In this document: piece after piece, positions 28,447 to 61,050 of the stretch
How positions within the stretch are numbered: the first letter of the stretch is position 1
Layout: every line of letters starts with the position of its first letter
Source: Polaribacter sejongensis
GTDB taxonomy: Bacteria > Bacteroidota > Bacteroidia > Flavobacteriales > Flavobacteriaceae
Reading direction: 5' to 3'
Length of the DNA: 64,000 nucleotides
NCBI RefSeq assembly: GCF_038024065.1
Contig: NZ_CP150667.1
Coordinates: 3,231,501 to 3,295,500 of the forward strand
The notes under the pieces: generated by a model
Told to the model about the DNA's origin: nothing
Seen by the model: the letters and a program-made list of their open reading frames with translations, nothing else
Database searches by the model: none
Program-made: the position numbers and the translations under genes

Positions 28447-29373
28447 ATGCACAAAAAATTAGAAGCCGATTTAATGAGTTTAGCACACAGCATTTTGCAA
28501 TTAAAAAATAAAGAAGATGTGTTTGCTTTAAAAGAAAAATCGAAAGAAATTTATGAGAAATTATCTTTATTAGCTTTTGTAGAGGAATATATAAACACAA
28601 CACCCAATTTAGAAGTAACAAAAGATGAATTAATTGAAAATGTAGAAAAAGGAATCGCATTAAAAGAAGAACAAGAAGTTGTTTCGGTTGATATTGAGTC
28701 GGTTAAAGAAGATATTGAAGAAGAAATAGTAACGCTTTATGAAATAGAAGAAGAGGAAGTAACTTTACCTGTTGAAGACCAAATTGAGGAAGAGCTAATT
28801 GAAGAAGAATTAATTGAGGAAGAATTGGCAGAGGAGTTAGTGATAGAAGAAGCAGAAGAAGATGCCGAAGAGGAAATTGAAGAACAGATAGAAGAAGAGA
28901 TTGAAGAGGAGGTGAAAGAAGAAGTGAAGGTTGTAGTTGAAGAAATTATAGAACAACCTTTTGATGAAATAGAAGATATTATATTTGCAGAACCAGAGAC
29001 AGTTGAAGTAAAGGAAGAAGTTAAAATTGAAGAAAGTAAGACTTTATCTTTAGAAGAAGAGTTGCAAGACACTATCTCTGTAGATCAAATGGCTACTTTA
29101 TTTGATATTCCTGTTGCTGCACCAAAATCATTAAATGATAAATTTTCTGCCAATATTCAAATAGGTTTAAATGATAGAATTGCCTTTGTAAAGAATTTGT
29201 TTGATGGGAGTCAAGAAGATTTTAATAGAGTAGTTTCTCAATTAAATACGTACGGAACCGAAAAGGAAGCTTTAAAATTTATCAATAAAATGGTAAAACC
29301 AGATTACGACTGGTCTACTCAACAAGAATTAGAAGCTCGTTTTATAGAAATTGTAGAACGTAAATTTGCATAA
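28447..29373 (+). CDS. Conserved acidic protein with glutamate-rich middle
   Basis: The 308-residue protein has no signal peptide. Residues 1-60 form a helical start (LEADLMSLAHSILQLKNKED), residues about 70-200 are a very glutamate-rich low-complexity stretch that would be disordered or coiled, and residues about 205-308 form a conserved-looking domain (LNDRIAFVKNLFDGSQEDFN, ending LEARFIEIVERKFA). I recall similar proteins in other Flavobacteriaceae without known function. The acidic stretch also gives a serine-rich antisense frame that is not a gene. It is divergent from tdk and followed by its own terminator. Confidence 0.75.
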   Translation: MHKKLEADLMSLAHSILQLKNKEDVFALKEKSKEIYEKLSLLAFVEEYINTTPNLEVTKDELIENVEKGIALKEEQEVVSVDIESVKEDIEEEIVTLYEIEEEEVTLPVEDQIEEELIEEELIEEELAEELVIEEAEEDAEEEIEEQIEEEIEEEVKEEVKVVVEEIIEQPFDEIEDIIFAEPETVEVKEEVKIEESKTLSLEEELQDTISVDQMATLFDIPVAAPKSLNDKFSANIQIGLNDRIAFVKNLFDGSQEDFNRVVSQLNTYGTEKEALKFINKMVKPDYDWSTQQELEARFIEIVERKFA

Positions 29374-55143: not shown

Positions 55144-55917
55144 ATGAAATTCGAGAATATTTTAGTTGAGAAAAAAGATAGTTTGGCTCAAATAACAATC
55201 AACAGACCCAAAAAATTAAATGCTCTTAATAAGGCAACAATTATAGAATTGAATGAAGCTTTTGAAGGATTAGAAGATGATACTAATATTAGGGCAATTA
55301 TTTTAACGGGTAGCGGAGAGAAAGCTTTTGTTGCAGGAGCAGATATCTCTGAATTTGCAGATTTTTCTGTAGATGAAGGAACCCGATTATCTAAATTAGG
55401 GCACGATACTTTATTCGATTATGTAGAAAATTTATCTACACCTGTTATTGCAGCCGTAAATGGTTTTGCTTTAGGTGGTGGATTAGAGTTGGCGATGTCT
55501 TGTCATTTTAGAATAGCATCTGATAATGCAAAAATGGGCTTGCCAGAAGTATCTTTAGGGGTTATACCTGGTTATGGAGGTACACAGCGTTTGCCACAAT
55601 TAGTGGGGAAAGGAAAAGCAATGGAAATGATTATGACTGCAGGTATGATTTCTGCGGATGAGGCAAAAGAATATGGTTTGGTGAATCATGTTACTACCCA
55701 AGAGGAGTTATTGCCATTAGCCGAAAAGATTGCAAGTAAGATTATAAGAAATTCATCGTTAGCTATTAGCGCAGCCATTAGAGCTGTTAATGCAGGTTTT
55801 GAAGATGGTGTTAATGGTTTTGATGTTGAAGTAGATGAATTTGGAGAGTGTTTTGGAACAGATGATTTTATAGAAGGTACTGATGCATTTTTAAATAAAA
55901 GAAAACCAAATTTTTAG
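55144..55917 (+). CDS. Enoyl-CoA hydratase/isomerase (crotonase family)
   Basis: The 257-residue enzyme hydrates 2-enoyl-CoA in fatty-acid oxidation or a related path. The oxyanion elements are VAGADISEF and GFALGGGLELAM, and the catalytic glutamates are Glu115 and Glu135, spaced exactly as in the family. It is a single-domain crotonase of normal length. No other beta-oxidation genes are near, so the pathway is not fixed. It lies 49 bases after the kinase. Confidence 0.92.
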   Translation: MKFENILVEKKDSLAQITINRPKKLNALNKATIIELNEAFEGLEDDTNIRAIILTGSGEKAFVAGADISEFADFSVDEGTRLSKLGHDTLFDYVENLSTPVIAAVNGFALGGGLELAMSCHFRIASDNAKMGLPEVSLGVIPGYGGTQRLPQLVGKGKAMEMIMTAGMISADEAKEYGLVNHVTTQEELLPLAEKIASKIIRNSSLAISAAIRAVNAGFEDGVNGFDVEVDEFGECFGTDDFIEGTDAFLNKRKPNF

Positions 55918-55933
55918 AGATAGTTATAAAAAA

Positions 55934-55960
55934 AAAGCGAGTCTAAATTAGACTCGCTTT
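55934..55960. terminator. Bidirectional terminator, first of the GCGAGTC family
   Basis: AAAGCGAGTCTA and TAGACTCGCTTT form a 12-bp stem with a three-base loop, between the enoyl-CoA hydratase gene and array copy 1. Its GCGAGTC core is repeated after each array gene. Confidence 0.85.
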
Positions 55961-56006
55961 AAGCATCAAAGTATGGCAGTAGATTGATGATGAAATTTAC
56001 TGTTTT

Positions 56007-56591
56007 TTAAATTCTGAAGTTTTCTTCATAAGACCTGTTATCTGTAAATATGACAACCTTATACGTTCCTTTTTCTTCTTCGGATAACTTGTAAATCCTG
56101 TTTATAAGTTCTTTACCTTCTACTTTCTCAGAAAGAATAATAGCATCGTTGAAATATAAAGTTACTTCTAAAGGCTTATTGTTAAACGCTATTTTAGAAA
56201 TTAAGATTAAATCTCCTTCTGTTCTAATTACAGGTTTAAAAATTATTTCATCTTTTTCTTCAAAAAAAGTAACAAAACCATCTTTTACCTCAAATTTCTT
56301 AACAATAATTTCGAAGTCTTTTTCTAGTTCTGTTCTGTACAAGCCGTCTTCTAGATTTGTTAGATCGAAAGTTTTAGCATAGTTTCCAGAACTTTGTAAT
56401 ACTTGTTTATATATTGTTATTCCGTATTCATTTATAATAGTTAAAGCATTTCCTTTTTTTACGGCTTTGTATTCAACTTTAACTCTTTTTACAGCTACTG
56501 CATTAGTAGATTCCTTGTTGTCGTTTGCGTAACTAATTAATGTTCCAAACATTAATGTTACTACTAAAATTGTTTTGATTGTTGTTCTCAT
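56007..56591 (-). CDS. Tandem-array secreted protein, copy 1
   Basis: The 194-residue exported protein has a signal peptide (ending FGTLISYAN) and then two similar beta-sandwich domains (about 35-108 and 118-194), the second ending GTYKVVIFTDNRSYEENFRI. Both resemble the tail of type IX secretion substrates (a G-x-Y turn, then a final amphipathic strand). No catalytic motif is seen and the family is unknown to me. Compared with copy 2, residues 1-107 differ at about 6 positions and residues 108-194 at about 33. It has its own promoter box (56621) and terminator (55934). Confidence 0.85.
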   Translation of the reverse strand: MRTTIKTILVVTLMFGTLISYANDNKESTNAVAVKRVKVEYKAVKKGNALTIINEYGITIYKQVLQSSGNYAKTFDLTNLEDGLYRTELEKDFEIIVKKFEVKDGFVTFFEEKDEIIFKPVIRTEGDLILISKIAFNNKPLEVTLYFNDAIILSEKVEGKELINRIYKLSEEEKGTYKVVIFTDNRSYEENFRI

Positions 56592-56620
56592 TTTTTCTTA
56601 TTTAATGGTTAGTAACACTA

Positions 56621-56628
56621 CAAAGGTA
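56621..56628 (-). promoter_or_regulatory. -7 promoter box TACCTTTG of array copy 1
   Basis: The minus strand reads TACCTTTG, an exact TAnnTTTG match, 29 bases before the start codon. Copy 2 has the same box at the same distance. Confidence 0.5.
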
Positions 56629-56793
56629 TGGTGGTAGTTAAGTTCTAAAAACATCATAATTGGTAACTTTATGTTCTAAATTATCATTAAATATATTTAA
56701 GTATTTTAAAGTAGTTAATACAGTATACATTAATGCTAATTATCTATAATGTTATATAATTGGTATTATAACTATAGAGAACATTTTATACAA

Positions 56794-56823
56794 AAAAAGC
56801 GAGTCCATTTGGACTCGCTTTTT
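56794..56823 (-). terminator. GCGAGTC-family terminator of array copy 2
   Basis: The A run with GCGAGTCC pairs with GGACTCGC and a T run, 13 bp in all with loop ATTT. It lies about 50 bases after the copy 2 stop. Confidence 0.85.
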
Positions 56824-56869
56824 ATCATTAAATTATAGCAGTAATTTAACGAAACAATTAACTAAATTT

Positions 56870-57454
56870 TTATATTGTAAAATTTTTTACGTAAGTTCTG
56901 TCATTGGTGTTTACAACAACCTTGTATGTTCCTTTTTCAAATTCAGATAATTTGTAAACTCTATTTAATACTTTTTCACCACTTACTTCATCAGAAAGGA
57001 TAATGTTATTTTGGTAGTATAAAGTTACATTTAAAGGTTTTTCTTCAAATTCAATTTTAGAAATCATAACCAAATTTCCTTCGGTTCTAATTACTGGTTT
57101 AAAAATTATTTCATTTTCGTCCTTATAAAAAGTAACAAAACCATCTTTAACCTCTAGTTTTTTAACAATAATTTCGAAGTCTTTTTCTAGTTCAGTTGTG
57201 TATAAACCATCCTCTAAATTCGTTAAATCGAAAGTTTTAGTATAGTTTCCAGAACTTTGTAATACTTGTTTATATATTGTTATTCCATATTCATTTTTAA
57301 TCGTTAAAGCATTCCCCTTTTTTACGGCTTTATACTCAACTTTAACTCTTTTTACAGCTACTGCATTAGTAGATTCCTTGTTGTCGTTTGCGTAACTAAT
57401 TAATGTTCCAAACATTAATGTTACTACTAAAATTGTTTTGATTATTGTTTTCAT
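56870..57454 (-). CDS. Tandem-array secreted protein, copy 2
   Basis: The 194-residue paralogue of copy 1 has the same signal peptide and first domain; the second domain (about 118-194, ending VVVNTNDRTYVKNFTI) is much diverged in surface residues but keeps the GTYKVVV core. Domain layout is the same as in the other four copies. The first-half similarity to copy 1 extends to the DNA. It has its own promoter box (57485) and terminator (56794). Confidence 0.85.
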   Translation of the reverse strand: MKTIIKTILVVTLMFGTLISYANDNKESTNAVAVKRVKVEYKAVKKGNALTIKNEYGITIYKQVLQSSGNYTKTFDLTNLEDGLYTTELEKDFEIIVKKLEVKDGFVTFYKDENEIIFKPVIRTEGNLVMISKIEFEEKPLNVTLYYQNNIILSDEVSGEKVLNRVYKLSEFEKGTYKVVVNTNDRTYVKNFTI

Positions 57455-57484
57455 TTTTTTCTTATTTAATGGTTAGTAACACTA

Positions 57485-57492
57485 CAAAGGTA
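57485..57492 (-). promoter_or_regulatory. -7 promoter box TACCTTTG of array copy 2
   Basis: The minus strand reads TACCTTTG, 30 bases before the start, in a leader nearly identical to that of copy 1. Confidence 0.5.
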
Positions 57493-57633
57493 CGTTGGTA
57501 GTTAAGTTCTAAAAACATCATAATTGGTATGATTATATGTTATTTTACCAGTATTAATTAATGTTAATTAATTGTTAAGTTAATATAGAGTATATTTATG
57601 TTAATCTTATTTTTATCAAAAAGTATTTACAAA

Positions 57634-57663
57634 TAAAAATCGAGTCCTTTTGGACTCGCTTTT
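57634..57663 (-). terminator. GCGAGTC-family terminator of array copy 3, one pair broken
   Basis: CGAGTCC and GGACTCG pair with loop TTTT and flanking A and T runs, but the usual G next to the stem is T (TCGAGTCC opposite GGACTCGC), so one pair is lost. The others in the array are intact. Confidence 0.7.
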
Positions 57664-57709
57664 ACCATCAAACTATAGCAGTAATTTGACGAAACAATTA
57701 ACTAAATTT

Positions 57710-58300
57710 TTATATATTAAATTCCTTTGAATAAGTTCTTTCATCAGAACTAACAACTACTTTATAAGCACCAACTTCCTTTTCAGATAATTTGTAAACT
57801 CTTTTTAAAAGTCTGTCTCCAGATATGGTTTCAGAAAGTACAACTTCATCATTATAATAAAGAGTAACTTTTAAAGGTTCGTTGTTAAAATTAATTTTTG
57901 ATACTAATAATAAATCACCTTCAGTTCTAATGATCGGTTTAAATATTTTTTCATCTTTATTATTTAAAAATGTAACCAATCCATTTTCAACATAAAATTG
58001 TTTAATAACAATTTCGAAGTCTTTATTTAATTCAGCAGAGTAGATCCCATTTTCTAAAGCAGAAAAATCAAATGTTCTAGAATAGTCTCCAGAATTTTTA
58101 ATTTCATTATTATAAACAGTTAAACCGTTACTATTTTTAATAGTTAAAGTCTGACCTTTTTTTACATTATTAAATTCAACCTTAACAGTTTTCTTTGCTT
58201 CTTTATAATTGGTATTGTCTTTTTCGTTTGCGCTAGTTATTAATGTTCCGAACATTAAAGCAACTAATATAATTTTATTTATTTTCATTTTATATGTCAT
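57710..58300 (-). CDS. Tandem-array secreted protein, copy 3
   Basis: The 196-residue paralogue (a second Met at residue 5 may be the true start) has a signal peptide ending FGTLITSAN and domains at about 38-110 and 121-196. It is about 96% identical to copy 4 by eye (7 differences in 196). First domain: VEFNNVKKGQTLTIKNSNGL; second domain ends VVVSSDERTYSKEFNI. It has its own TAAATTTG promoter box at 58321. Confidence 0.85.
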   Translation of the reverse strand: MTYKMKINKIILVALMFGTLITSANEKDNTNYKEAKKTVKVEFNNVKKGQTLTIKNSNGLTVYNNEIKNSGDYSRTFDFSALENGIYSAELNKDFEIVIKQFYVENGLVTFLNNKDEKIFKPIIRTEGDLLLVSKINFNNEPLKVTLYYNDEVVLSETISGDRLLKRVYKLSEKEVGAYKVVVSSDERTYSKEFNI

Positions 58301-58320
58301 TTATATGATTAATAACACTG

Positions 58321-58328
58321 CAAATTTA
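58321..58328 (-). promoter_or_regulatory. -7 promoter box TAAATTTG of array copy 3
   Basis: The minus strand reads TAAATTTG, an exact TAnnTTTG match, 20 bases before the start at 58300. Copies 3, 4 and 5 share this box and its surroundings. Confidence 0.5.
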
Positions 58329-58482
58329 TGACAGCAATTTTGTTTAGAAAACATCGTAATTGGTGTTTTTATGTGTTATATTAACAAGTATGTTTATTTG
58401 TTGAATTTTAGTGTGTTAATATAGTATATGTTTGTGTTAATTTTATACAATAAATATTTTTAGTCTAGATGTTTATAAATAT

Positions 58483-58512
58483 AAAAAGCGAGTCCTTTTG
58501 GACTCGCTTTTA
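58483..58512 (-). terminator. GCGAGTC-family terminator of array copy 4
   Basis: AAAAAGCGAGTCC pairs with GGACTCGC plus a T run, with loop TTTT, about 45 bases after the copy 4 stop. Confidence 0.85.
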
Positions 58513-58557
58513 CCATCAAACTATAGCAGTAATTTGACGAAACAATTAACTAAATTT

Positions 58558-59148
58558 TTATATATTAAATTCTTTTGAATAAGTTCTTTCATCAGAACTA
58601 ACAACTACTTTATAAGCACCAACTTCCTTTTCAGATAATTTGTAAACTCTTTTTAAAAGTTTGTCTCCAGATATGGTTTCAGAAAGTACAACTTCATCAT
58701 TATAATAAAGAGTAACTTTTAAAGGTTCGTTGTTAAAATTAATTTTTGATACTAATAATAAATCACCTTCAGTTCTAATGATCGGTTTAAATATTTTTTC
58801 ATCTTTATTATTTAAAAATGTAACCAATCCATTTTCAACATAAAATTGTTTAATAACAATTTCGAAGTCTTTATTTAATTCAGCAGAGTAGATCCCGTTT
58901 TCTAAAGCAGAAAAATCAAATGTTTTAGAATAGTCTCCAGAATTTTGAATTTCATTATTGTAAACAGTTAAACCGTTACTATTTTTAATAGTTAAAGTCT
59001 GACCTTTTTTTACATTATTAAATTCAACCTTAACAGTTTTCTTTGCGTCTTTATAATTGGTATTGTCTTTTTCGTTTGCGTTAGTTATTAATGTTCCGAA
59101 CATTAAAGCAACTAATATAATTTTCTTTATTTTCATTTTATATATCAT
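58558..59148 (-). CDS. Tandem-array secreted protein, copy 4
   Basis: The 196-residue paralogue is almost identical to copy 3 and shares a first domain without a difference with copy 5 over about residues 35-115, while its second domain differs from copy 5 at about eight positions. It has a signal peptide ending FGTLITNAN, its own promoter box (59169) and its own terminator (58483). Confidence 0.85.
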   Translation of the reverse strand: MIYKMKIKKIILVALMFGTLITNANEKDNTNYKDAKKTVKVEFNNVKKGQTLTIKNSNGLTVYNNEIQNSGDYSKTFDFSALENGIYSAELNKDFEIVIKQFYVENGLVTFLNNKDEKIFKPIIRTEGDLLLVSKINFNNEPLKVTLYYNDEVVLSETISGDKLLKRVYKLSEKEVGAYKVVVSSDERTYSKEFNI

Positions 59149-59168
59149 TTATATGATTAATAACACTG

Positions 59169-59176
59169 CAAATTTA
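59169..59176 (-). promoter_or_regulatory. -7 promoter box TAAATTTG of array copy 4
   Basis: The minus strand reads TAAATTTG, 20 bases before the start codon at 59148. Confidence 0.5.
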
Positions 59177-59327
59177 TGACAGCAATTTTGTTTAGAAAAC
59201 ATCGTAATTGGTGTTTTTGTGTGTTATATTAACAAGCGTGTTTATTTGGTGGATTTTAATATGTTAATATAGTATATGTTTGTGTTAATTTATGCAATAA
59301 AGGTTTTGTCTAGATGTTTATAAACAT

Positions 59328-59356
59328 AAAAAGCGAGTCCTTTTGGACTCGCTTTT
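59328..59356 (-). terminator. GCGAGTC-family terminator of array copy 5
   Basis: AAAAAGCGAGTCC pairs with GGACTCGC plus a T run, loop TTTT. Bases after it (ACCATCAAACTATAGCAGTA) are also shared with the copies at 57664 and 58512. Confidence 0.85.
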
Positions 59357-59402
59357 ACCATCAAACTATAGCAGTAATTTGACGAAACAATTAACTAAAT
59401 TT

Positions 59403-59981
59403 TTATATATTAAATTCTTTTGAATAAGTTCTTTCATCAGAACTAACAATTACTTTATAAATACCAGTTTCTTTTTGAGACAATTTGTAAACTCTTTTTA
59501 AAATTTTGTCCCCAGATAAGGTTTCAGAAAGTACAGCTTCATCATTATAATAAAGAGTAACTTTTAAAGGTTCATTGTTAAAATTAATTTTTGATACTAA
59601 TAATAATTCACCTTCCGTTCTAATGATTGGTTTAAATATTTTTTCATCTTTATTGTTTAAAAATGTTACCAATCCATTTTCTACATAAAATTGTTTAATA
59701 ACAATTTCGAAGTCTTTATTTAACTCAGCAGAGTAGATCCCGTTTTCTAAAGCAGAAAAATCAAATGTTTTAGAATAGTCTCCAGAATTTTGAATTTCAT
59801 TATTATAAACAGTTAAACCGTTACTATTTTTAATAGTTAAAGTCTGACCTTTTTTTACATTATTAAATTCAACCTTTACAGTTTTCTTTGCGTCTTCAGT
59901 ATTGATGTTTTCGTTTGCATAACTAATTAATGTTCCGAACATTAAAGCAACTAATATAATTTTCTTCATTTTATTTGTCAT
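59403..59981 (-). CDS. Tandem-array secreted protein, copy 5
   Basis: The 192-residue paralogue at the head of the array has a slightly shorter signal region (MTNKMKKIILVALMF onward, ending FGTLISYAN, the same words as copies 1 and 2). The first domain equals that of copy 4; the second differs at about eight positions (RTEGELLL, ILKRVYKLSQKETGIYKVIV). It faces the AraC regulator gene across 196 bases. Function unknown. Confidence 0.85.
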   Translation of the reverse strand: MTNKMKKIILVALMFGTLISYANENINTEDAKKTVKVEFNNVKKGQTLTIKNSNGLTVYNNEIQNSGDYSKTFDFSALENGIYSAELNKDFEIVIKQFYVENGLVTFLNNKDEKIFKPIIRTEGELLLVSKINFNNEPLKVTLYYNDEAVLSETLSGDKILKRVYKLSQKETGIYKVIVSSDERTYSKEFNI

Positions 59982-60001
59982 TTATATGATTAATAACACT
60001 G

Positions 60002-60009
60002 CAAATTTA
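60002..60009 (-). promoter_or_regulatory. -7 promoter box TAAATTTG of array copy 5
   Basis: The minus strand reads TAAATTTG, 20 bases before the start codon at 59981, in a leader like those of copies 3 and 4. Confidence 0.5.
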
Positions 60010-60150
60010 TGGTAGCAATTCTGTTTAGAAAACATCTAAATTGGTAGGTTTATGTAGTAGATTAACTGTTATTTTTATGTTAAAAGAAAGTAAAGATAAT
60101 TTAGTCTATAATTTTGTTAATTTTATACAGCTTTTTAGTGTTAAGTGTCG

Positions 60151-60158
60151 TAAATTTG
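60151..60158 (+). promoter_or_regulatory. -7 promoter box TAAATTTG of the AraC gene
   Basis: An exact TAnnTTTG match 19 bases before the start at 60178. It is the divergent partner of the array promoter at 60002. Confidence 0.45.
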
Positions 60159-60177
60159 CCGTTAAATAGTACTATTT

Positions 60178-61050
60178 ATGAACGTTAAACCTACTTTAGA
60201 AAAAATTAGTCCAGATTTTGGAAGCTCAATACTTGTAAAAAAACACACAGAGTTTTTGAAACAAATAAAAGCATTCTGGCATTTTCACCCAGAAATCGAA
60301 TTAGTTTATGTGAATAAGGGAAAGGGTAAAAGACATATTGGTAATCATTTGTCTTACTTTAATAATAGTCAGTTATTATTAATAGGTTCTAATTTGCCAC
60401 ATAATGGTTTTACAGATAGGCTAACAACAAATGGTTCTGAAACCTTGGTACAATTTAAACCAGATTTTTTAGGAAATGAGTTTTTTGAAGTTCCAGAAAT
60501 GAAACCTATTAGTATTTTATTTGAAAAAGCTAAAAAAGGAATTCTTTTTGGTGTAAAAACAAAACAAAAATTAGGTCCAAAAATTGAAAAATTATCTGAA
60601 AAAGAGGGTTTTAAACAAGTTTTGATTTTGTTAGAAATTTTACACACACTTTCTAAATCAGACGATTATACTTTATTGAATGCAGATGGTTATGCTTTTG
60701 AGACGCAGCCACAAGACAGTAGTAAAATAGATGTAATCTTTAAACATATAAACGAAAACTTTAATCAACATATTAGTTTAGATGAAATTTCTGATCTTGT
60801 AAGTATGACGGTTCCTGCGTTTTGTAGATTTTTTAAGAAAACAACAGGAAGAACGTTTACTAAGTTGGTAAATGAATATAGAGTTGTACATGCAACTAAA
60901 TTGTTATCTGAAAGCCAAACGAGTATTACAGATATTTGTTTTGAATGTGGTTTTAATAACTTTTCTCACTTTAATAAATTATTTAAAGAATTTACAGGGA
61001 AATCAGCTTCAAAATATAGAAGTGAAATGATGAGTTTAATTCAGAATTAA
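60178..61050 (+). CDS. AraC-family transcriptional regulator with cupin sensor domain
   Basis: The 290-residue regulator has an N-terminal cupin-type effector domain (about 25-100: FWHFHPEIELVYVNKGKGKR and LLLIGSNLPHNGF) and a C-terminal double helix-turn-helix (about 190-288: HISLDEISDLVSMTVPAFCR, then TDICFECGFNNFSHFNKLFK). AraC regulators of this kind respond to small ligands and act on nearby genes. It is divergent from the array, so it may control it, although every array gene has its own promoter. Confidence 0.92.
   Translation: MNVKPTLEKISPDFGSSILVKKHTEFLKQIKAFWHFHPEIELVYVNKGKGKRHIGNHLSYFNNSQLLLIGSNLPHNGFTDRLTTNGSETLVQFKPDFLGNEFFEVPEMKPISILFEKAKKGILFGVKTKQKLGPKIEKLSEKEGFKQVLILLEILHTLSKSDDYTLLNADGYAFETQPQDSSKIDVIFKHINENFNQHISLDEISDLVSMTVPAFCRFFKKTTGRTFTKLVNEYRVVHATKLLSESQTSITDICFECGFNNFSHFNKLFKEFTGKSASKYRSEMMSLIQN

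What the first reader, a model, noticed from the sequence alone, without database searches (positions are those of the whole stretch)
56007..59981. Five tandem secreted paralogues with a conserved first domain and a diverging second domain
Five same-strand genes of 192-196 codons repeat with a period of about 845-860 bases. By eye, copies 1 and 2 differ at about 6 of the first 107 residues but about 33 of the last 87; copies 4 and 5 are identical over about residues 35-115 but differ at about eight positions in the second domain. Copies 3 and 4 do not follow this rule and are nearly identical throughout. The pattern could come from gene conversion of the first half or from selection for variation in the second half. 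A small, secreted, copy-number-variable family with a varying domain would suit surface recognition, adhesion or competition between cells.
Basis: seen in the sequence. Interest (0 to 1): 0.75.

Follow-up and report, generated by a model that had tools for sequence, protein, structure and literature searches.

The report
Amplified target genes of an AraC regulator
Five side-by-side copies of a small, probably exported two-domain protein in a marine Polaribacter each carry the same private on-switch next to one regulator gene, a regulator-target pair that recurs in many Flavobacteriaceae and whose copy number varies between species.

Summary
In detail: five minus-strand genes (192-196 codons, spacing 840-863) with the stated difference counts. 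Homogenised 5' stretches exist (likely in copies 1/2, clear in relatives), but a bias of synonymous homogenisation to the first half is not significant over 14 groups. The second domain is under weaker purifying selection (dN/dS 0.21-0.34 against 0.10-0.14), without a sign of positive selection; compared with single-copy relatives the first domain is slowed rather than the second accelerated.

A pattern for it occurs five times in the 4.5-Mb genome, only at these genes, and in 66 of 67 units of 20 multi-copy genomes, always with 19 bases of spacing. In other genera of the family 88 of 96 listed genomes have the divergent pair. Each unit has its own promoter and terminator. Likely reading: an AraC-induced envelope or secreted Ig-like binding protein amplified for dose; regulator binding, ligand and partner are not shown. 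Six paper searches listed nothing on this family.

The parts
59403..59981 (-). copy 5 (position 1 beside AraC; subtype A), probably exported two-domain protein, 192 aa
   Evidence: AlphaFold model mean pLDDT 81, two beta-sandwich domains
58558..59148 (-). copy 4 (position 2; subtype A), 196 aa
57710..58300 (-). copy 3 (position 3; subtype A), 196 aa
56870..57454 (-). copy 2 (position 4; subtype B), 194 aa
56007..56591 (-). copy 1 (position 5; subtype B), 194 aa
60178..61050 (+). divergent AraC-type regulator (HTH_18 and HTH_AraC over cut-off; cupin matches below cut-off), proposed dedicated activator
   Evidence: Pfam; synteny; co-occurrence
60002..60043 (-). operator/promoter of copy 5: CAATTnnGATGTTTT-N19-TAnnTTTG
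59169..59210 (-). operator/promoter of copy 4
58321..58362 (-). operator/promoter of copy 3
57485..57526 (-). operator/promoter of copy 2
56621..56662 (-). operator/promoter of copy 1
59329..59356 (-). terminator-like hairpin after copy 5
58484..58511 (-). terminator-like hairpin after copy 4
57641..57658 (-). terminator-like hairpin after copy 3
56794..56823 (-). terminator-like hairpin after copy 2 (same GCGAGTCC stem; read by eye, not listed by the scan)
   Evidence: sequence
55934..55960 (-). terminator-like hairpin after copy 1 (between it and the convergent enoyl-CoA hydratase gene)
56455..56584 (-). 5' stretch of copy 1 without a difference at polymorphic sites from copy 2 (57318-57447): candidate conversion tract; limits converted by hand from copy-5 numbering

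Best explanation
A one-regulator, one-target module in which the target has been amplified. An AraC-type activator (perhaps ligand-responsive through a cupin-like N-terminal half) binds CCAATTnnGATGTTTT, placed exactly 19 bases before the TAnnTTTG promoter element, and switches on a small exported protein made of two homologous Ig-like/DUF3244-like beta-sandwich domains. In this Polaribacter clade the whole transcription unit (operator, promoter, gene, terminator) has been duplicated head to tail, up to six copies, and split into two subtypes, A near the regulator and B farther away. Because every unit carries its own operator, each extra copy adds dose under the same regulator. Shared operator and 5' gene sequence gives homology for unequal crossing-over and gene conversion, which sometimes homogenise the first half; the first domain is held under strong purifying selection within each subtype while the second drifts faster under weaker purifying selection. 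SHOWN by sequence: array, motif and its uniqueness in this genome, linkage, two subtypes, internal domain homology, conversion runs in relatives, selection measures. INFERRED: that AraC binds this motif and activates, that copies raise dose, that the protein is exported and works in the envelope or outside the cell by binding something. The inducing ligand and the binding partner are not known.
For: Motif upstream of all 5 genes and at no other place in the genome, reversed-pattern control 0. Motif in 66 of 67 units of 20 multi-copy genomes (50 exact, 16 with 1-3 mismatches), each with a 19-base spacer; for the 67th, a copy with an in-frame stop, the ORF call starts mid-gene so its promoter was not looked at. 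AraC divergently adjacent in 62 of 68 loci (duplicates included; the 6 others: one contig end, four outside the family, one Eudoraea MAG), and within 1.5 kb in 88 of 96 listed family-bearing genomes of other genera; 6 of the other 8 have it in the genome, one of them (G249) at 1,507 bases. In 166 genomes of the genus: both 78, family only 5, AraC only 5, neither 78. G202 has the regulator about 270 kb from its five copies and keeps the motif with one mismatch at 4 of 5, the fifth poorly (5 mismatches). The pair persists with other flanks (Zobellia L063; L145; L146). 18 of 20 examined AraC-bearing genomes without a listed first-pass hit have a diverged relative beside AraC. Terminator-like hairpins after four of five copies by scan, the fifth by eye. 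Order A..A B..B in the eight nearest genomes examined that have both subtypes. Conversion runs. Domain 1 against domain 2: hhalign probability 77, at most 3.9 in 20 column shuffles.
Against: No binding, expression or ligand data. The motif overlaps the -33 region, so it could be a promoter element for a sigma factor rather than an AraC site. A search for a 21-base direct repeat was inconclusive (0.42 at 21 bases, about 0.5 at 30). Among 27 more distant AraC-linked units, 16 have the motif with at most 3 mismatches and 19-base spacing, 4 with 4-5 (possibly chance), 7 none (L049 and L137 appear to be one locus). N-biased homogenisation is not significant overall. Co-occurrence p-values are not corrected for phylogeny; the pair could partly hitch-hike in a conserved neighbourhood. 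Cupin matches of the regulator are below cut-off.
Confidence: 0.66

Rival explanations
1. Variable recognition or competition proteins: the second domain is a diversifying binding face (kin or surface recognition, adhesion), the array being a repertoire.
For: Ig-like fold; the family evolves far faster than its regulator (AraC aa distance 0.05-0.08 against 0.41/0.46 for the two domains, 12 single-copy pairs); copy number varies; in the second domain loops vary more than strands (0.89-0.96 against 0.72 bits).
Against: dN/dS well below 1 in both domains, dN above dS in 1 of 342 same-subtype pairs; second domain no faster than in single-copy relatives; no toxin or immunity partner recognised beside it; vertical synteny rather than island-like context.
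Confidence: 0.15
2. T9SS cargo: the protein is a short cargo carrying a type A C-terminal sorting domain, displayed or released by the type IX system.
Confidence: 0.15
3. Plain tandem duplication with no special mechanism: neutral copies, the half-and-half pattern being domain-level constraint only.
For: Same-subtype dN/dS is lower in the first domain between genomes too (0.13-0.14 against 0.26-0.32), so constraint alone gives much of the pattern; copies 4/5 have similar dS in both halves; the homogenisation bias is not significant.
Against: Operators kept at exact spacing in each unit while farther upstream DNA diverges; conversion runs in relatives also with third positions only (7 of 68 pairs); in single-copy genomes and between subtypes the two domains diverge about equally, so the asymmetry belongs mainly to array subtypes.
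Confidence: 0.2

Closest known systems
DUF3244 (PF11589), small Ig-like proteins of Bacteroidota; solved example 3sd2 (BT_3571)
   Different: two tandem domains; below the family cut-off; paired with an AraC regulator
Por_Secre_tail / T9SS type A sorting domain (PF18962, TIGR04183)
   Same: profile similarity of the first domain; fold similarity of the second to the RgpB CTD; one weak C-terminal TIGR04183 hit on copy 2
   Different: Pfam match internal and below cut-off; the C-terminal domain does not match the genome's sorting-domain profile
AraC-type local activators beside a surface-protein locus (for example YSIRK-antigen regulators, TIGR04094)
   Same: AraC regulator next to a gene it may control; hit of 51 bits
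   Different: far below the equivalog cut-off of 200; other phylum; target here is an amplified small protein

Membership tests
DUF3244 (PF11589) | score over the Pfam gathering cut-off (25 bits) | tested here: not met
   five copies: 15.8, 20.5, 24.8, 24.6, 22.7 bits; several close relatives carry precomputed PF11589
DUF3244 (PF11589) | Ig-like beta-sandwich | tested here: met
T9SS type A sorting-domain protein | sorting domain over cut-off at the extreme C terminus | tested here: not met
   PF18962 match lies within residues 31-103, 16.4-24.6 bits against 27; TIGR04183 13.8-17.1 bits against 23 where seen, at the C terminus only for copy 2; C domain against the genome's profile probability 2
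T9SS type A sorting-domain protein | secretion depends on the T9SS | not testable with these tools
   needs mutants
AraC/XylS regulators | C-terminal double HTH | tested here: met
   HTH_18 74 bits against 33.6, HTH_AraC 48.8 against 26.6
AraC/XylS regulators | cupin-type ligand-binding N-terminal domain (many members) | tested here: inconclusive
   Cupin_2 14.3 bits (cut-off 27.2) and AraC_binding 13.3 (21.1), both below cut-off
AraC/XylS regulators | operator of direct repeats spaced 21 bases, as for AraC itself (recalled) | tested here: inconclusive
   similarity 0.42 at 21 bases, about 0.5 at 30

The most novel reading that the evidence does not exclude
A widespread, apparently undescribed sensing module of Flavobacteriaceae: a dedicated AraC sensor whose only regulon is a fast-evolving exported Ig-like protein that itself binds or buffers the same environmental ligand or partner; in Polaribacter, operator-carrying units form an expandable array in which the shared operator and first domain act as the recombination anchor and the second domain, which most one-domain versions retain, supplies the binding variety.
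Probability: 0.22. Interest if true: 0.72.

Novelty: new variant of a known kind. Interest (0 to 1): 0.52.

Why it matters
It turns five hypothetical proteins into a testable regulon: one regulator, five promoters with a fixed-spacing motif found only there in the genome, and a natural copy-number series, 0 to 6, in one genus. In a sample of 249 genomes of the family the target was detected in 103 and a close relative of the regulator in 143, yet six paper searches listed no description. Units duplicated with promoter and terminator allow a direct test of whether bacteria raise the dose of a regulated protein by repeating the whole transcription unit, and of how conversion and selection act on two domains of one gene.

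Tried and rejected
Positive selection in the second domain: not supported by dN/dS. N-biased synonymous homogenisation as a general rule: not significant. The C-terminal domain as a T9SS sorting tail: not met by profile, though one weak C-terminal TIGR04183 hit exists. 21-base direct repeat in the operator: inconclusive. Rfam over 55900-60250: 0 matches at gathering scores. Solved structures by sequence: best E 0.37. Foldseek hits are general Ig folds with TM-scores of about 0.2-0.3 and large rmsd over both domains; VIA-align rows cover mainly residues 115-192, so the first domain was hardly tested by structure. NCBIfam: nothing over cut-off for the five secreted proteins; a bacteriocin family of Brevibacillus (NF053514, JUQZ-1) touches residues 1-61 of copies at 14-20 bits against 40 (best E 0.00076, copy 2); it lies on the signal-peptide end and I take it as chance similarity, not as evidence for a bacteriocin (two paper searches, listings only). 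PADLOC: 0 matches for six proteins. Sigma-70-type promoter scan: 27 sites against 29.3 in shuffles, uninformative. Paper searches on this family; nothing on it in the listings. Of PMC10434189 I read only the two passages with DUF3244 (table rows of B. thetaiotaomicron genes); all other papers were seen as listings.

Limits of counts. The W-clade tests use 38 units of 9 genomes that I chose, out of 67 units of 20 multi-copy genomes, out of 83 positive genomes of the genus. The copy G151_3 (in-frame stop) was left out. The subtype of G127_5 was set by hand to B, so differ slightly. The sorting-domain profile used 30 of the 66 matches, three of which are copies of this array below cut-off. One search listed places for 96 of its 102 other positive genomes; the six unlisted are weak. 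One search looked at 20 of the 48 AraC genomes without a listed hit; 2 of 20 had no relative. Two of the five 'family only' genomes (G067, G123) are weak partial matches, and G096 and G123 do have a shortened AraC ORF that fell below the threshold. The run test with all sites mixes selection and conversion. Single-copy pairs are mostly at large distances; the six single-copy loci nearest the window clade show a modest excess of second-domain change (13 of 15 pairs), against about twofold in array subtypes.
Full report
WHAT IS THERE. The window lies in a 4,504,946-base single-contig genome; the closest named proteins are from Polaribacter. Positions 1-3 form subtype A, 4-5 subtype B.

THE REGULATOR AND THE SWITCH. 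Beside position 1, divergently, lies an AraC-type gene (60178-61050; HTH domains over cut-off, cupin matches below). Upstream of each copy is CCAATTnnGATGTTTT, then 19 bases, then TAnnTTTG, which I recognise from memory as the Bacteroidetes -7 element. In 67 units from 20 multi-copy genomes the motif is found in 66 (50 exact, 16 with one to three mismatches), each with a 19-base spacer; the 67th is a copy with an in-frame stop whose ORF call starts mid-gene, so its promoter was not looked at. In the whole own genome the pattern CAATTNNGWTGTTTTN{16,26}TANNTTTG has five matches, all at these genes; the reversed control has none. A second conserved box, TAAtaTAgcAtAtAAA, lies just upstream. Among 27 more distant AraC-linked units, 16 have the motif with at most three mismatches and 19-base spacing, four with four or five, seven none; the five loci L060-L062, L064 and L065, without AraC, lack it. 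Terminator-like hairpins follow four copies by scan and the fifth by eye.

LINKAGE. Of 68 loci with the family, duplicates included, 62 have the regulator divergently adjacent. Of 166 genomes of the genus 78 have both, 5 the family only, 5 the regulator only, 78 neither (Fisher p 3e-34, not corrected for phylogeny). Exceptions look like decay: G096 keeps the target beside a shortened AraC ORF, G123 has a shortened AraC ORF and only a 39-residue remnant of the target, G109 lacks the target between AraC and the enoyl-CoA hydratase. In other genera of the family 88 of 96 listed genomes have the divergent pair within 1.5 kb, and 6 of the other 8 have the regulator in the genome, one just beyond that limit. 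Of 48 regulator-bearing genomes without a listed target, 20 were examined and 18 have a diverged relative beside it. The position between an HD-domain gene and an enoyl-CoA hydratase (Pfam) is shared by many genera, but the pair also persists with other flanks (Zobellia L063, L145, L146). In G202 the regulator lies about 270 kb from five copies; four keep the motif with one mismatch, the fifth poorly.

COPY NUMBER AND EXCHANGE. In the genus 83 of 166 genomes have matches; 23 have two or more, up to six (in G157 the two are pieces of one broken gene, and G144 and G097 include a partial match). Copies run head to tail away from the regulator. In the nine genomes of the W clade that I compared, A copies precede B copies in the eight that have both; G029 has A only (one copy typed by hand). 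In G127 positions 1/3 and 2/4 are near-identical or identical genes, a two-unit duplication, while the regulator-side DNA upstream of position 1 differs. In G120 positions 1/2 differ at none of the first 420 CDS bases and at 27 sites afterwards. Run tests over 68 within-genome pairs put 13 pairs at Bonferroni 0.023 with all sites and 7 at 0.05 or less with third positions only; apart from a 3'-end run in three G121 pairs the significant runs lie wholly or mostly in the first half. For the window's copies 1/2 the all-site test passes and the third-position test does not (0.61). Conversion in this very pair is likely, not proven.

SELECTION. Same-subtype pairs between genomes: mean dN over mean dS 0.14 and 0.13 in the first domain, 0.32 and 0.26 in the second (types A and B). 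Within genomes: 0.10 and 0.14 against 0.34 and 0.21. dN exceeds dS in 1 of 342 pairs in the second domain and in none in the first. The ratio of first- to second-domain dS is lower within than between genomes in 9 of 14 groups, p=0.43 (all). At regulator divergence 0.05-0.08, 12 pairs of single-copy relatives differ at 0.41 (first) and 0.46 (second) of residues, 64 array pairs of one subtype at 0.19 and 0.36. The first domain is slowed in arrays; the second is not sped up. In single-copy genomes overall and between subtypes A and B the two domains are about equally diverged, though the six nearest single-copy loci show a modest second-domain excess (13 of 15 pairs).

READING. The best account is a dedicated AraC-regulated exported protein whose complete transcription unit has been amplified, with dose as the simplest benefit and subtype A/B specialisation of the first domain as a second layer. 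Binding by AraC, activation, export route, ligand and partner are inferred or unknown. The fast evolution of both domains relative to the regulator would suit an outward-facing binding protein, which keeps the recognition reading alive without supporting it directly.

PRIOR KNOWLEDGE. Where a source names the listed proteins it calls them hypothetical, DUF3244 or T9SS/secretion-system sorting-domain proteins. Six paper searches listed nothing on this family or its pairing; that is a statement about those searches in an open-licence library only.

Noticed in passing
   Followed up: partly
L139 (G202:C1:755000-774000): Five copies without adjacent AraC, interrupted by two larger ORFs (982 and 430 codons); the regulator is about 270 kb away and four copies keep the motif.
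   Followed up: partly
L060, L061, L062 (Prolixibacteraceae): Distant relatives outside Flavobacteriaceae share a different divergent neighbour pair (about 390 and 235 aa) and lack AraC and the motif.
   Followed up: no
window 28774-28922: Overlapping 12- and 15-base tandem repeats (GAAGAA...), possibly a coding Glu-rich stretch.
   Followed up: no
L133 (G109), L136 (G123), L134 (G096): Loci where the target is missing or the regulator ORF is shortened: natural decay stages of the pair.
   Followed up: partly
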